From the NCBI RefSeq assembly GCF_022024015.1, contig NZ_CP091786.1:3410001-3474000 (forward strand): 64,000 nt of DNA. The letters are read 5' to 3'. Under the pieces are notes generated by a model. It ran no database searches and was not told the DNA's origin. It saw only the letters and a program-made list of their open reading frames with translations. This document shows positions 6,186-64,000 of this stretch, one piece after another; position 1 is the first letter of the stretch; each line of letters starts with the position of its first letter. Source of the stretch: Prevotella sp. E9-3 (lineage in GTDB: Bacteria; Bacteroidota; Bacteroidia; Bacteroidales; Bacteroidaceae). The position numbers and the translations under genes are program-made.

Positions 6186-7976
6186 ATGAAACTATATTCC
6201 GACGAAGAACTTGCAGAAATTCTCGACAAACCGGTATTTCATCTTATTGGCGAATCGGCCGACCACCTGGGCCTTGAATGCTATGTGGTAGGCGGTTTTG
6301 TACGCGATATTTTCCTGGAGCGTCCCAGCAACGACATCGATGTGGTTGTTGTGGGCAGCGGTATCGAACTAGCCAAGGAAGTGAAGCGCCGTCTGGGCAG
6401 AAAGGCCCACCTCAGCGTGTTCAAGAACTTCGGAACAGCACAAGTGAAGTTAAGTGGAGAGTCTTTTTCAAGTGTAGAGTGTAGAGTGGATAGTGGAGAG
6501 TTTGCTACCGCTCCGCAGGACAGTTCAAGGAATAGTGAAGAGTTAAAAACGAAGAGTGAAAAAACTGCAGCGGTAGCCGCTCGGCCTTTGGACGCTTGCA
6601 CGGCAAGAAACTCTACACTCTCCACTCTCCACTCTACACTCCCTTCTGCAGCGGTAGCAAACTCTCCACTCTCCACTCTACACTCTACACTAAAAGAGCT
6701 CGAGTTCGTCGGTGCCCGTCGTGAAAGCTATAGTCATGATTCGCGAAAGCCTATTGTGGAGGACGGCACTCTGGAGGATGACCAGAACCGTCGCGACTTC
6801 ACCATCAACGCTATGGCTATCTGTCTAAACAAGAACCGTTTCGGCGAACTTGTCGATCCCTTCAACGGACTGGCCGACCTTGAGGATGGCATCATCGCTA
6901 CACCACTCGAACCTGGCATCACCTTCAGCGACGACCCACTGCGCATGATGCGCTGCATCCGTTTTGCCACCCAACTGAATTTCCAGATAGAAGACGAGAC
7001 TTTCGAAGCCCTGCAGCGCATGGCCGACCGCATCAAGATTGTAAGCGGCGAGCGCATCGAAGTGGAACTGAACAAAATCATCATGGCCCCCCACCCCAGT
7101 ATCGGCTTTGAATACTTGCAACGCTCCGGACTGTTACAGATCATTCTGCCCGAGCTGTCGGCACTCGACATTGTAGAACAGAAAAACGGACGCGCTCACA
7201 AAAACAACTTCTACCACACACTGGAAGTGCTGGAGAACGTTGTTTCAAATGAAGAATTAAGAATGAAGAATGAAGAATTTGCTACCGCTCCGCAGGACAA
7301 CTCACAGGAAAGTCTCAATGGAAAAAATGCAGCGGTAGCAAATTCTTCATTCTTCATTCTTAATTCTTCACTTGAAAAAGACTCTACACTTTATCTCCGC
7401 TGGGCCGCCCTACTCCATGACATTGGAAAGACCAAGACCAAGCGTTGGGACCCTGCCATCGGCTGGACTTTCCACAATCATAACTATGTGGGTGCCAAGA
7501 TGGTAGCTCAGATATTCCGTAGGCTGAAACTGCCTTTGGGAGCAGAGATGAGGTATGTGCAGAAACTGGTAGATATGCACATGCGTCCACAGGTTATTGC
7601 CGACAACGAAGTGACCGATTCGGCCGTACGCCGACTGCTGAACGATGCCGGCGACGACATCGACGACCTGATGTGCCTCTGCGAAGCCGACATCACTTCA
7701 AAGAACGAGGTAAAGAAAAAGATGTTTCTCGAAAATTTCCGAATGGTGCGCGAGAAACTTACCGACCTGAAGGAAAAAGACTACAAGCGTTTGTTACAGC
7801 CAGTTATCGACGGCAACGAAATCATGGAACTGTTCCATCTGAAACCTTCACGCGAAGTGGGCACTTTGAAACAAACACTCAAAGATGCCGTACTCGACAA
7901 CAAGGTTGAGAACGAACGCGAACCCCTCATGCAGCTTCTCATGCAAAAAGCCCGTGAAATGGGGCTTGTGCAATAA
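6186..7976 (+). CDS. cca: CCA-adding tRNA nucleotidyltransferase / HD-domain protein with two in-frame repeat insertions
   Basis: Adds or repairs the 3' CCA end of tRNAs in the cytosol. The nucleotidyltransferase head shows GGFVRDIFLERPSNDIDVVV (GG, RD and DxD), then GTLEDDQNRRDFTINAMAI and DPLRMMRCIRFA. The HD domain shows FYHTLEVLENV and LRWAALLHDIGKTKTKR. At 596 residues it is about 115 longer than usual (around 480). The excess lies in two low-complexity inserts, near residues 90-169 and 354-402. Both are encoded by palindromic elements that share the peptides EFATAPQD and AVANS. Both fall between secondary-structure elements of the head and the HD domain, and no core motif is lost, so the gene is probably functional. 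Confidence 0.92.
   Translation: MKLYSDEELAEILDKPVFHLIGESADHLGLECYVVGGFVRDIFLERPSNDIDVVVVGSGIELAKEVKRRLGRKAHLSVFKNFGTAQVKLSGESFSSVECRVDSGEFATAPQDSSRNSEELKTKSEKTAAVAARPLDACTARNSTLSTLHSTLPSAAVANSPLSTLHSTLKELEFVGARRESYSHDSRKPIVEDGTLEDDQNRRDFTINAMAICLNKNRFGELVDPFNGLADLEDGIIATPLEPGITFSDDPLRMMRCIRFATQLNFQIEDETFEALQRMADRIKIVSGERIEVELNKIIMAPHPSIGFEYLQRSGLLQIILPELSALDIVEQKNGRAHKNNFYHTLEVLENVVSNEELRMKNEEFATAPQDNSQESLNGKNAAVANSSFFILNSSLEKDSTLYLRWAALLHDIGKTKTKRWDPAIGWTFHNHNYVGAKMVAQIFRRLKLPLGAEMRYVQKLVDMHMRPQVIADNEVTDSAVRRLLNDAGDDIDDLMCLCEADITSKNEVKKKMFLENFRMVREKLTDLKEKDYKRLLQPVIDGNEIMELFHLKPSREVGTLKQTLKDAVLDNKVENEREPLMQLLMQKAREMGLVQ
6452..6691. repeat. Palindromic heptad element E1, in frame inside cca
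   Basis: Arms at 6471-6512 and 6650-6691 are inverted copies with one mismatch in 42 bp. They consist of 7-bp repeats (AGTGTAG, AGTGGAT, AGTGGAG) running into TTTGCTACCGCT, mirrored by AGCGGTAGCAAA. The core contains CCGCAGGACA, a second AGCGGTAGC, and a two-hairpin module at 6577-6609 with stem CTTGC/GCAAG. An outer segment at 6452-6473 (AGAGTCTTTTTCAAGT) recurs inverted at the right end of E2. There is no stop codon in the cca frame. Exact borders are uncertain. Confidence 0.85.
7247..7391. repeat. Palindromic heptad element E2, in frame inside cca
   Basis: Arms 7247-7289 and 7331-7373 are inverted copies with one mismatch in 43 bp, built of GAATGAA-type heptads running into TTTGCTACCGCT and its complement. 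The 41-bp core begins CCGCAGGACAACTC, as in E1. The heptads differ from those of E1, yet the two arms of each copy match each other. The segment from 7370 (ACTTGAAAAAGACTCT) recurs inverted at the left end of E1. Confidence 0.88.
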
Positions 7977-7994
7977 CACTTTTTCTATATTCCA

Positions 7995-8126
7995 ATTGTT
8001 ATTCAATTGCATTGCAATTATTATTCAGTTGCAACGCAATTACCATTCAGTTGTAATACAATTGTTATTCAGTTGCAATACAATTGTTATTCAGTTGCAG
8101 TGCAATTGAATAACAGTTGCGATATA
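7995..8126. repeat. 22-bp tandem repeat array, six units
   Basis: Five clear units and a sixth degenerate one run head to tail with a 22-bp period. The core is ATTCAGTTGCAATACAA, with variants GCAACGCAA and GCATTGCAA. Each unit holds an imperfect TTGCA/TGCAA dyad. There are no spacers, so it is not a CRISPR. The same family recurs at 45723-45898. The array starts 19 bp after cca and is followed by about 200 bp of AT-rich DNA before the susC promoter. Confidence 0.85.
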
Positions 8127-61333: not shown

Positions 61334-62254
61334 ATGAAAAAAGTTTATGGCGTCATAGGTGTCGGGGCTATCGGCGGGTTCTACGGAGCCAAGCTGGCAC
61401 ACAGCGGACAGGAAGTCCATTTCCTGTCGCATAGCGACTATCAGTATGTGAAGGACAATGGTCTGCAGGTTGATTCGTGCGACGGCTCGTTCCATATTGA
61501 CCATCCACATGTCTATCAGTCGGCAACTGACATGCCAAAGTGTGATGTGGTGCTGGTGGGCTTGAAAACCACCAACAATCATCTTCTGCCCGAACTACTG
61601 ACCCCATTGCTGAAGCCCTCTACCCTGGTAGTACTCATTCAGAATGGTATTGGTGTAGAGGCCGATGTTCAGCAGATGTTCCCCCATCTGCAGTTGGTGG
61701 CAGGCTTGGCTTTCATCTGTTCTGCCAAAACCAAGCCCGGCGTGGTCAATCATCAGTGCTATGGCAACATCAACTTAGGCAACTACTCTTGCCGTGACGA
61801 AAGACTGCTGCAGGAAGTTGTTGACGATTTCAATGCCACTGGCGTGCGTGCACAGCTGGTAGAATATGAGGAAGCACGTTGGAAAAAGGCTGTTTGGAAC
61901 ATGCCCTTCAATGGCATGACCGTAGCCTTGAACACACGTACCGATTTGCTGCTGAAGAATCCGGCTACCCGCCAACTGATTCGTGACCTGATGATGGAGG
62001 TAATCAATGCTGCCCGCCATTTAGGGGTGAAGAACATTGACGAGACGTTTGCCGACAAGATGATTCACACCACTGATGTGATGACTCCCTATTCGCCTTC
62101 AATGAAACTTGATTTCGATTTCCACAGGAAGATGGAAATCAAGTACCTCTATTCACGTCCTATAGAGATAGCCCGTCAGGCAGGTTTCGAGATGTCTAAA
62201 CTGTCGATGCTCGAAGCCGAACTGAAGTTCTTGTCAGAGGAAGAAGAGGGCTGA
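61334..62254 (+). CDS. Putative 2-dehydropantoate 2-reductase (ApbA/PanE family)
   Basis: NADPH-dependent ketopantoate reductase family, pantothenate synthesis, though many paralogues have other substrates. It has 306 residues. The Rossmann motif is YGVIGVGAIGGFYGAKLA at the N-terminus, followed by VLVGLKTTNNHLLPE and QNGIGVEADV. The catalytic lysine region is EEARWKKAVWNMPFNGMTVA near residue 185. Its last 79 bp overlap, tail to tail, the 3' end of the DUF4435 gene. Confidence 0.85.
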   Translation: MKKVYGVIGVGAIGGFYGAKLAHSGQEVHFLSHSDYQYVKDNGLQVDSCDGSFHIDHPHVYQSATDMPKCDVVLVGLKTTNNHLLPELLTPLLKPSTLVVLIQNGIGVEADVQQMFPHLQLVAGLAFICSAKTKPGVVNHQCYGNINLGNYSCRDERLLQEVVDDFNATGVRAQLVEYEEARWKKAVWNMPFNGMTVALNTRTDLLLKNPATRQLIRDLMMEVINAARHLGVKNIDETFADKMIHTTDVMTPYSPSMKLDFDFHRKMEIKYLYSRPIEIARQAGFEMSKLSMLEAELKFLSEEEEG

Positions 62255-63357
62255 GGGATCTGAGTGTTCTGAGTATTCTGAGTGTTCTGAGTGTTCTGAG
62301 TATTCGGAGTGTTCGGAATATTCTGATTATTCAGATTATTCTGAATACTCTGATTATTCTGATCATTCTGATCAAAATACCCTTGAATATCGGCCTGAAG
62401 TTTGCGGAAGGGTGCCGAAAGCGTATAGCCGGTGTTTTTCTTCAACATGGTTTTAATGTCCTGTCGCGAGTTTTCGTAGCAGGACATTTCATTTCGCTTC
62501 TGTGTGCCGTGAGCCCTCGAGTGATAGATCTCGTTCTGCCGTTCCTGTCTCAGCTGGTTGCACACCTTTGTTAGAATCGGAGCCACAACGGTATCGAACA
62601 GATGGTGGCCCTGAATGTACAGATAAGTGGTCTGAGGAGTTACGCCCAGCGTCAGAATCTCGTCTTTCAGTTTCAGGTACGCCTCTTTGTTGCCGGGAAA
62701 CATCCGTTGCAGTTCGCGCACTTTCTGAAAAGCTTTCCGCCGCACATTCTGAATGGAGCGTACGGAATCTTGTATCACAAAACCGCCGGGGTCGCACACT
62801 CGATTGAAATCGGTGAGTGAGAAACGCCCGTAGTGACCCGTTCGGTAAGCCCACACCGACCATACGAACAATGGGAAGATGGCTTCACTGAACTGACTGA
62901 AATATTCCTGGAAGTCGAAGATGCGGTGATCGTTCAATGTTACGGCCACACACACATCGTGCAGCGAAGGAGCATAACATTGATAGTTTTCAATGGCATA
63001 AACATAAGTGTGAAACACGTATGGACTGGTCAGAATCTTTTTCGACGTAGGTGTCACTCCCTGCAGCAGATAGTCGTAGTCGGCATCCACACAGGCTATC
63101 ATGTCAGGGCCTGTCTGTCCTTCAATGAAATTCATCAGTACCGACTTCTTCCCCCTTAGCAGGGCTTGTTTTGAAGGGAGCATCACCTCAAAATAGCGGG
63201 TCTCGTCTTCAAAAGGACCTAATACGGTGCGCCAAAAGTAAATATCATCGTAGCTCTCGACGTAGGCCACAATCCTGCGTCGTGCTTTCTTCGACCTCAA
63301 GGCGTTGGCTGCCTGGAAGTACTGACTGTTGATATTATCTCTTAAACGGTTCGACAC
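62176..63357 (-). CDS. DUF4435 (TOPRIM-like) protein, AriB-like partner of the adjacent ATPase
   Basis: GTG at 63357 (VSNRLRDNINSQYF) is chosen because related proteins begin here; the longer open frame upstream is repeat element E3. The length is 393 residues. TOPRIM-type acidic residues are Glu34 in IVAYVESYDDIYFW and Asp91/Asp93 in IACVDADYDYLL. DUF4435 plus an ABC-type ATPase is the composition of PARIS (AriB and AriA), in which phage triggers release AriB to cut a tRNA. That function here is inference, since similar pairs are common in Bacteroidota. The C-terminus is an Asn/Gln/Thr-rich repeat tail encoded by 9-bp repeats, and it overlaps the panE-like gene antisense. Confidence 0.75.
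   Translation of the reverse strand: MSNRLRDNINSQYFQAANALRSKKARRRIVAYVESYDDIYFWRTVLGPFEDETRYFEVMLPSKQALLRGKKSVLMNFIEGQTGPDMIACVDADYDYLLQGVTPTSKKILTSPYVFHTYVYAIENYQCYAPSLHDVCVAVTLNDHRIFDFQEYFSQFSEAIFPLFVWSVWAYRTGHYGRFSLTDFNRVCDPGGFVIQDSVRSIQNVRRKAFQKVRELQRMFPGNKEAYLKLKDEILTLGVTPQTTYLYIQGHHLFDTVVAPILTKVCNQLRQERQNEIYHSRAHGTQKRNEMSCYENSRQDIKTMLKKNTGYTLSAPFRKLQADIQGYFDQNDQNNQSIQNNLNNQNIPNTPNTQNTQNTQNTQNTQIPQPSSSSDKNFSSASSIDSLDISKPA
62259..62375. repeat. 9-bp tandem repeat encoding NTQ-like tail
   Basis: About 13 units of TCTGAGTGT type (variants TCTGAGTAT, TCGGAATAT, TCTGATTAT). Read on the minus strand they encode NTQ, NNQ and NDQ tripeptides near the C-terminus of the DUF4435 protein. The nearly identical units at the left end suggest recent slippage. 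Confidence 0.85.
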
Positions 63358-63372
63358 GGATGAAGATTTTTT

Positions 63373-63526
63373 AGTGTAAAGTGTAGAGTTTAGAGTGGAT
63401 AGTGTAGAGTTTGCTACCGCTCCGCAGTACAACTCAAAGAATAGTGAACAGTTAAAAGTGAATAGTGGAAAGATTGCAGCGGTAGCAAACTCTACACTAT
63501 CCACTCTAAACTCTCCACTATACAGT
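63373..63526. repeat. Palindromic heptad element E3 between ATPase and DUF4435 genes
   Basis: Arms 63373-63421 and 63478-63526 are inverted copies with three mismatches in 49 bp. Heptads such as AGTGTAG and AGTGGAT lead into TTTGCTACCGCT and its complement, as in E1 and E2. The core begins CCGCAGTACAACTC. The last codons and TAG stop of the ATPase gene (63518-63520) lie inside the right arm. The element is open in the DUF4435 frame, so a read-through N-terminal extension is possible. Confidence 0.85.
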
Positions 63527-64000
63527 GATGTCGCTCACTTCTGTGACGTTGTCCACCCATCCGTTCATCACTACGGCCGGCGAGTGAGTGGTGAGTATAA
63601 TCTGTACGTTCGGGTTCAGTTCCAGAATCAGATCGATGAGTTTCTTCTGCCATTCAATGTGCAGGCTCACTTCCGGTTCGTCCATGAACAGTACGTAGGG
63701 CTGATCATCCTCAACAAGGACAGTGAGCAGGATGATGAGCATCTGCTTTTCGCCACTCGACAACTGGTAGGGCATGAGTTGCTCACCTATTTGTGTGAAT
63801 CGTATCTCGTTTTCAGTGCGCACAATGCGTTTCCCGGTATTGGAAAACAGGTCGTCGAGCATGTCCTGAAAGCGTTTCTTCTTTTGCGACAGTTGCTGGG
63901 CTGCATCCATATTGCCAGTCTGCAACTGCTCAATGATACGGTTGCCAACATTCACTTGATAGTCCAGAAACTTACGTTGCAGGTGGTAGAGCTGTATGTC
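63518..64000 (-). CDS. ABC-type/AAA ATPase, C-terminal part only, AriA-like
   Basis: The frame is open to the right edge, so the N-terminus with Walker A is outside. The last 160 or so residues show the ABC signature YQLSSGEKQMLIILLTVL, Walker B YVLFMDEPEVSLHIEWQ and the switch histidine in IILTTHSPAVVMNG, as in SMC/OLD-like and AAA_15/21 ATPases. It is followed by the DUF4435 gene on the same strand, the PARIS arrangement. The final residues (DITV then TAG) are partly encoded by repeat element E3. Confidence 0.8.
   Translation of the reverse strand, partial: DIQLYHLQRKFLDYQVNVGNRIIEQLQTGNMDAAQQLSQKKKRFQDMLDDLFSNTGKRIVRTENEIRFTQIGEQLMPYQLSSGEKQMLIILLTVLVEDDQPYVLFMDEPEVSLHIEWQKKLIDLILELNPNVQIILTTHSPAVVMNGWVDNVTEVSDITV

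What the first reader, a model, noticed from the sequence alone, without database searches (positions are those of the whole stretch)
6452..7391. Two long palindromic elements inserted in frame inside an essential gene (cca)
E1 and E2 have inverted arms of 42-43 bp with one mismatch each, made of 7-bp repeats ending in TTTGCTACCGCT/AGCGGTAGCAAA. Both keep the cca frame open, add about 115 residues, and fall in loops of the nucleotidyltransferase head and the HD domain. Both encode EFATAPQD and AVANS. The heptads differ between E1 and E2, yet each element's two arms match one another, so the palindrome is maintained as a unit. This recalls the Rickettsia palindromic elements in principle but is a different sequence family; I know of no description.
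Basis: partly seen in the sequence, partly recalled or inferred. Interest (0 to 1): 0.88.

Follow-up and report, generated by a model that had tools for sequence, protein, structure and literature searches.

The report
Mobile hairpins inside essential bacterial genes
Two hairpin-shaped DNA inserts sit in frame inside an essential tRNA-repair gene of a Prevotella-like bacterium; they look like stripped-down copies of a little-known, probably mobile element that carries a small four-helix protein gene and occurs in several bacterial phyla.

Summary
E1 (about 6471-6691) and E2 (7243-7377) are near-perfect palindromes in frame in cca (596 aa; 477 in relatives without inserts). They are not unique to cca. 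The genome has 14 loci with the exact cap TTTGCTACCGCT; 7 lie in frame inside genes (cca twice, carA, a carA-carB linker, mutS2, a GH2 glycosidase, an M20 peptidase). Of 108 heptad-bearing copies read in Prevotella loci, all 25 sense copies inside long frames read FATA. Left and right arms covary. cca proteins identical elsewhere differ by most of an element at these loops.

Main new result: the same arms and cap flank genes for a 23S-rRNA-intervening-sequence ("four helix bundle", PF05635) protein. Of the loci fetched, 65 of 73 such genes in the genus, and 12 of 13 on plasmids of five phyla, lie between inverted repeats, mostly 7- or 8-bp arrays; none of 995 random segments scores that high. 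Cap type follows the protein's tree. So E1 and E2 are best read as gene-less relatives of an S23/IVP-carrying palindromic element, surviving where a frame stays open. Mobility and translation are inferred. They work like Rickettsia palindromic elements; sequence kinship was not tested.

The parts
6186..7976 (+). cca (tRNA nucleotidyltransferase), 596 codons, interrupted in frame by E1 and E2
   Evidence: ORF; Pfam PolyA_pol, PolyA_pol_RNAbd, HD
6471..6691 (+). E1: palindromic element, heptad arms of AGTGTAG/AGTGGAT type, loop S1 of the head domain
6471..6512 (+). E1 left arm: about 4 heptads then cap TTTGCTACCGCT (6501-6512)
6577..6608 (+). second cap-like module inside E1 (CCGCTCGGCCTTTGGACGCTTGCACGGCAAG); similar modules lie near own-genome 83.9 kb and 2.313 Mb
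   Evidence: read
6610..6640 (-). extra right-arm heptad array inside E1
   Evidence: (pairs I4, I6), one search hit 3416608-3416640
6650..6691 (-). E1 right arm: cap' AGCGGTAGCAAA (6650-6661) and inverted heptads
7243..7377 (+). E2: palindromic element, heptad arms of AATGAAG/AATTAAG type, loop S2 at the start of the HD domain
7278..7289 (+). E2 cap TTTGCTACCGCT
7331..7342 (-). E2 cap' AGCGGTAGCAAA
63375..63524 (.). E3: third palindromic copy, between an ATPase-like ORF (63518-64000, -; name read from sequence) and a DUF4435 ORF (62176-63504, -); open in frame with the latter

Best explanation
E1 and E2 are gene-less (non-autonomous) members of a family of palindromic mobile elements. The full element is: about four 7-bp repeats, a cap (here TTTGCTACCGCT), a gene of about 370 nt for an S23/23S-rRNA-IVP four-helix-bundle protein starting shortly after the cap, the inverted cap, and the inverted repeats; about 500 bp in all. 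Shown: this anatomy, the shared cap and heptad types, the covarying arms, the phase bias, the dispersal over unrelated genes, and differences of most of an element between otherwise identical cca proteins. Inferred: that the S23/IVP protein binds the hairpin ends and helps the element copy itself, directly or in trans for gene-less copies; that copies land widely and, in genes, only those in a stop-free phase and in tolerant loops survive; that arm identity is kept because one arm is copied from the other (hairpin-templated repair or replication); and that the cca inserts are translated as disordered loops.
For: Own genome: 23 exact caps (reversed-pattern control 1) at 14 loci, 7 in frame inside genes (domains). 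Phase: 25 of 25 sense copies read FATA; antisense 20 of 25 assigned to AVAN. Of 58 copies outside long frames only 9 are stop-free in the FATA phase. Arms covary. P0004-P0007 against P0019/21/29/32/37: 99.5-100% identical in the compared parts but 32 aa apart at S2. S23/IVP link: cap A and such heptads at both ends of 14 IVP genes, e.g. L349, L420, L404, L198, L440. Inverted flanks scoring above 12 at 62 of 69 distinct IVP loci and 3 of 4 scored apart; best arm period 7 in 38 and 8 in 19 of the 62. Random segments: at most 12 in 800, at most 11 in 195. Cap label on the IVP tree: 5 changes, shuffled mean 22.1, 0 of 200 as low. Beyond the genus: 12 of 13 plasmid IVP genes of Spirochaetota, Bacteroidota, Bacillota, Cyanobacteriota and Chloroflexota, period 7 in all 12.
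Against: The complete own genome shows no cap-A IVP element: no exact cap pair 330-520 bp apart; of its IVP genes examined one has another cap (3538816), one no clear arms (2482472) and one other arms (2501911); 3 of 6 matches were not examined. So E1/E2 have no obvious helper at home. No insertion event, target-site duplication or catalytic step was seen. Some cap-A IVP elements sit in the same gene context in several species (L349, L420, L422), which looks inherited. The match of gene-less units to IVP arms of their own genome is modest: 48 of 17,160 label assignments do as well, yet the own genome was the best column in only 1 of 4 genomes (G065). Some cca inserts are plain heptad arrays without caps and 7-aa indels occur, so slippage also acts. 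Heptads are common beyond this family: a loose heptad pattern has 219 own-genome matches against 98 for its reversed control. 8 of 73 IVP loci lack clear arms. Near-copies inflate the tree test.
Confidence: 0.72

Rival explanations
1. Not mobile: surface loops of essential proteins are hypervariable simple-repeat tracts that grow and shrink by slippage of 7-bp units, and palindromes arise locally by template switching.
For: Cap-less heptad arrays in the same cca loops (L058, L060, L063); 21-bp (7-aa) indels between P0045 and P0051; heptad variety between copies; many heptad matches outside this family.
Against: The same 12-bp cap recurs at 14 loci of one genome, several with similar inner sequence, and in several species. 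Cap and heptad types match PF05635-carrying elements. A 32-aa piece with the cap is present or absent between otherwise identical proteins; deletion between arms could also give that difference.
Confidence: 0.14
2. Regulatory or structural elements under selection: heptad-cap units are leaders or binding sites, as proposed for TAACTGA repeats, and coding copies are by-products.
For: 30 of 40 single non-coding units have the ATG of a long frame within 200 nt after the cap, 14 of 40 have one on the other side. Most TAACTGA repeats of one Beggiatoaceae genome lie just upstream of start codons (PMC4679880, abstract).
Against: Half of the own-genome loci lie inside genes; orthologues in other species lack the element or hold another one. 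The orientation bias is also expected if single units are left ends of elements whose own gene starts just after the cap.
Confidence: 0.08
3. REP/BIME-type palindromes mobilised by a Y1 (RAYT) transposase.
For: Palindromic, dispersed, paired inverted units; 12 of 20 genomes searched have PF01797 matches.
Against: No PF01797 match in the complete own genome. Arms are heptad arrays and are linked to PF05635 instead.
Confidence: 0.02
4. Assembly artefact.
For: Long palindromes are hard for assemblers (established knowledge).
Against: Single-contig genome of 3.73 Mb; frames open throughout; E2 almost unchanged in P0002 and P0003, listed from other contigs and sources.
Confidence: 0.01

Closest known systems
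Rickettsia palindromic elements (RPE; also Wolbachia)
   Same: Palindromes of about 150 bp inserted in frame in unrelated housekeeping genes, with a conserved peptide (passages of PMC10969869 and PMC2996958).
   Different: Here heptad arms with a cap, single half-units, and a linked protein gene (PF05635). Sequences were not compared; the passages read name no gene-carrying RPE.
23S rRNA intervening sequences with an S23p ORF (e.g. Coxiella, Leptospira)
   Same: Terminal inverted repeats around an ORF of the S23p family; called a selfish element, mobility proposed but unproven (PMC4990558, passages incl. part of the abstract). PF05635 '23S rRNA-intervening sequence protein' is the family of the L349 protein.
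   Different: The 20 IVP loci scanned hold no rRNA match; the ones I read lie beside protein genes, and their gene-less forms lie inside them. The passages read do not mention heptad arms.
TAACTGA heptamer repeats of Beggiatoaceae, cyanobacteria and Bacteroidetes
   Same: 7-bp direct repeats, often just upstream of start codons, some in ORFs (PMC4679880, abstract and two sections).
   Different: Described as direct repeats with one indirect set; no link to PF05635 in the parts read. The cyanobacterial PF05635 loci here mostly have inverted heptad arrays of other sequences.
PARCELs
   Same: Palindromic repeats that code for protein (PMC2996958, abstract).
REP/BIME and MITEs
   Same: Short, dispersed, palindromic, non-autonomous.
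   Different: No Y1 transposase in this genome, no target-site duplication shown, arms are heptad arrays.

Membership tests
Rickettsia palindromic elements (RPE) | Palindrome inserted in frame in unrelated genes | tested here: met
Rickettsia palindromic elements (RPE) | Sequence belongs to one of the described RPE families | not tested
   No RPE sequence was fetched or compared
23S rRNA IVS / S23p element | PF05635 ORF inside inverted terminal repeats | tested here: met
   Met for the gene-carrying relatives; E1 and E2 themselves carry no such ORF
23S rRNA IVS / S23p element | Located in a 23S rRNA gene | tested here: not met
   No rRNA match in 20 IVP loci at gathering threshold; E1 and E2 lie in cca
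REP/BIME with RAYT | Y1 transposase in the genome | tested here: not met
   G000: 0 matches
MITE | Terminal inverted repeats shared with an autonomous element | tested here: inconclusive
   Cap and heptad types are shared with IVP-carrying elements of relatives; none with this cap was seen in the same genome, and autonomy of those is not shown
MITE | Target-site duplication | tested here: inconclusive
   Relatives' loops read are too different to place the ends base by base
TAACTGA-type heptamer repeats | Direct repeats of that heptamer | tested here: not met
   Heptads of this family are AGTGTAG, AATGAAG and similar

The most novel reading that the evidence does not exclude
PF05635 'four helix bundle' genes define a mobile-element class that crosses phyla: palindromes with heptad (or octad) arms. 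Its solo ends and gene-less palindromes would account for many bacterial heptanucleotide repeats and for in-frame inserts in essential genes, and 23S rRNA intervening sequences would be one niche of the same class, with the S23 protein as its mobility or hairpin-binding factor.
Probability: 0.55. Interest if true: 0.93.

Novelty: new variant of a known kind. Interest (0 to 1): 0.87.

Why it matters
It adds another lineage in which palindromic DNA is inserted in frame into essential genes, and it supplies a candidate gene-carrying parent. It gives the S23/IVP protein, said to have no known function in the passages read of PMC4990558, a genomic role that can be tested: binding and copying heptad-armed hairpins. 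It also offers a possible source for heptanucleotide repeats in Bacteroidota and cyanobacteria, and makes cca a natural laboratory for how an essential enzyme accepts about 120 foreign residues.

Tried and rejected
RAYT (Y1 transposase) mobilisation: disfavoured, no PF01797 in the complete genome. Element-caused carA-carB fusion: rejected, several relatives have the fused frame without this element (L290, L291, L293; L296 has a long repeat linker). DUF559 as helper of this family: among the regions printed I saw no DUF559 frame with cap-A ends; DUF559 lies in another palindrome family. A plasmid or phage origin: only weak matches. IVP elements in 23S rRNA: none among 20 loci. Target-site duplication: not resolvable. 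Literature: of which I saw listings, showed no description of this family or of a PF05635-heptad link (open-licence PMC only; 0 papers with at least 3 of 5 terms). First counts of IVP loci (63 of 72; 43 of 50) held a few duplicates and cut-off loci; the recount is.

Full report
1. What is there. The window ORF 6186-7976 is cca by Pfam. It holds two near-perfect palindromes, E1 and E2. Each is built of about four 7-bp repeats, the cap TTTGCTACCGCT, an inner stretch, and the inverse. The window has six exact caps in three inverted pairs; the third pair, E3, lies at 63375-63524 between an ATPase-like frame and a DUF4435 frame. As RNA the stems are very stable (z -14.6 and -12.2).

2. The sites in cca. 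57 of 60 genomes have a cca match. Of 29 relatives' loci fetched, S1 could be read in 26 and S2 in 21; none has E1 or E2. Several carry other heptad inserts at the same two loops; one (L059) is a palindrome with a different cap, GGTATGATTA. Among 120 listed of 8000 homologous proteins (the list favours insert-bearing relatives because the query has inserts), 96 had both anchor motifs. P0012, P0013 and P0016 lack both inserts. P0002 and P0003 share E2 almost unchanged but differ at S1. P0004-P0007 and P0019/21/29/32/37 are 99.5-100% identical in the compared parts but differ by 32 aa at S2. P0001 (the window protein) and P0003 are 100% identical in the compared parts and have quite different S1 inserts. 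So the loops change faster than the rest of the protein, and by large pieces. A weak AlphaFold model leaves the inserts disordered between secondary-structure elements.

3. The family in this genome. 23 exact caps at 14 loci (control, the reversed pattern, 1). Seven loci are in frame inside genes: carA, a carA-carB linker, mutS2, GH2, M20 peptidase and cca twice (domains). Two are open with the start of a frame (a radical-SAM protein read as QueE, and DUF4435), and five lie outside long frames. Without an exact cap, further in-frame heptad inserts were read in an FprA-like protein, a sodium:solute symporter, two C-terminal linkers, an alanine racemase and PurL. Among these own-genome loci I recognised no broken gene, but the five loci outside frames were not compared with orthologues. 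A BLAST of the E1 left arm gave 44 own-genome matches at E up to 10; a loose heptad pattern gave 219 against 98 for its reversed control.

4. Frame and arms. Of 125 distinct cap copies in the loci fetched by then, 108 have heptads and 17 do not. Inside frames of at least 150 codons, 25 of 25 sense copies are in phase TTT GCT ACC GCT (FATA). Of 25 antisense copies 20 were assigned to the AVAN phase and 5 to phase SGSK; two of the five have both phases open (L007, L168), and L007 (mutS2) reads AVAN in its full frame. 29 of these 50 copies have a partner cap, so palindromes can count in both classes. The other two sense phases are nearly always closed by stops, so the sense phase is forced for any survivor; antisense, two phases are usually open. 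Of 58 copies outside long frames, 9 are open in the FATA phase, 53 in AVAN and 56 in SGSK. Coding sense copies carry heptad variants such as AATTAAG, AGTTAAG or AGTGGAT where the common heptad would give TGA or TAG. In 33 palindromes the two arms agree at 0.865 against 0.755 between elements (0 of 20,000 shuffles); in the own genome 0.906 against 0.822 for 11 elements (14 of 20,000).

5. Spread. 68 of 150 genomes of the genus have the cap, but by arithmetic a 12-mer turns up by chance in about a third of 3-Mb genomes; 13 genomes have 10-23 copies against reversed-pattern controls of 0-2. A longer pattern found 17 named stretches, 12 of them Prevotella or Prevotellaceae MAGs (some titled goat rumen or roe deer abomasum); the other 5 lack heptads. 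Of 40 single non-coding units, 30 have a start codon of a long frame within 200 nt after the cap and 14 have one on the other side.

6. The gene-carrying relatives. One cap pair in G023 is about 385 bp apart and encloses a PF05635 (23S_rRNA_IVP) gene. The family occurs in 52 of 60 genomes of the genus, over the cut-off in 47. Loci were taken in three lots: the best 30, 20 regions I picked, and the best 30 from 24 genomes chosen mostly because they carry cap-A copies; so the share of cap A is not a frequency. After removing duplicates and loci cut at an end, 62 of 69 IVP genes have inverted flanks scoring above 12; of 4 loci whose gene the L349 protein did not find, 3 score above 12. 800 random segments never exceed 12. 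The best repeat period is 7 in 38 and 8 in 19 of the 62. In the first lot 24 of 28 exceeded the 95% point (13) of flanks paired between different loci, whose maximum was 26. On a tree of 71 IVP rows (one of them a cut-off near-duplicate) the caps A (14), B (10) and other (47) need 5 changes against a shuffled mean of 22.1 (0 of 200 as low). Cap A falls in two groups, one with AGTGTAG-type heptads like E1 and one with AGTGAAA/AATGAAG-type heptads like E2. Gene-less units resemble the IVP arms of their own genome somewhat (48 of 17,160 label assignments as good; for example 29 of 30 bases between L352 and L349), but the own genome was the best column in only 1 of 4 genomes.

7. Beyond the genus. 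tblastn of the IVP protein against plasmids gave 26 records. I fetched 13, roughly one per genus. 12 of 13 score above 12 and the thirteenth 12, against at most 11 in 195 random segments; the best period is 7 in all 12. They span Treponema, Bernardetia, Monoglobus, Chlorohelix and cyanobacteria.

8. How it most likely works. The gene-less palindromes share ends with IVP-carrying elements, as MITEs share ends with transposons. I infer that the four-helix protein (only solved relative found by sequence: 2rld) recognises the hairpin ends, and that copies landing in genes survive only in a stop-free phase and in tolerant loops. The catalytic step is unknown. No cap-A IVP gene was seen in the own genome, so E1 and E2 may be stranded or may depend on an IVP of another type.

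9. Relation to what is known. It works like Rickettsia palindromic elements (passages), and its gene-carrying form is like 23S rRNA intervening sequences, for which mobility with an ORF-encoded factor was proposed but not shown. The 20 loci scanned are not in rRNA, and there is no RAYT in this genome. Ten literature searches in an open-licence library showed no description in their listings; subscription papers are not covered.

10. Changes made on re-checking. The IVP counts were recounted without duplicates (62 of 69 plus 3 of 4 instead of 63 of 72), the modest result is told in full, and my confidence went from 0.75 to 0.72 because of the latter.

Noticed in passing
L269 (own genome C1:138000-142500), L274, L275, L276, L277, L279, L280; protein P0084: A second palindromic family: C-rich inverted repeats around a DUF559 (PF04480) endonuclease-like frame, inserted in frame in host genes (names read from sequence: DegT aminotransferase, a helicase at the same spot in two genomes, ABC-F ATPase, leucyl-tRNA synthetase, epimerase; cca loop S1 in P0084). 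25 of 37 DUF559 loci score above 12 for inverted flanks.
   Followed up: partly
L319, L323, L328 (purL): The PurL loop holds a heptad insert in the window's genome and a different palindromic heptad insert in G004; G015 has a short loop.
   Followed up: partly
L369-L398: One IVP clade has octad (8-bp) arms such as AGTTGACA or AGGAGTTA instead of heptads.
   Followed up: partly
L203 2222-5380; L290, L291, L293, L296: carA and the start of carB are one reading frame in this genome and several relatives, with variable linkers.
   Followed up: partly
P0031: A 1018-aa protein joins cca to PF00149 and PF02872 domains.
   Followed up: no
window 7990-8120; L205 after about 5700: About 20-bp repeats around CAATTG/GCAATACAA motifs downstream of cca; a similar tract lies near own-genome 105 kb.
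   Followed up: no
L218, L219: Cap-bearing inserts in linkers just before C-terminal sorting-like tails (WYSLDGRRV..., WYTLDGRKL...; motif name recalled).
   Followed up: no
window 62176-64000: ATPase-like frame next to a DUF4435 frame with E3 between them; possibly a defence-type pair (guess, not tested).
   Followed up: no
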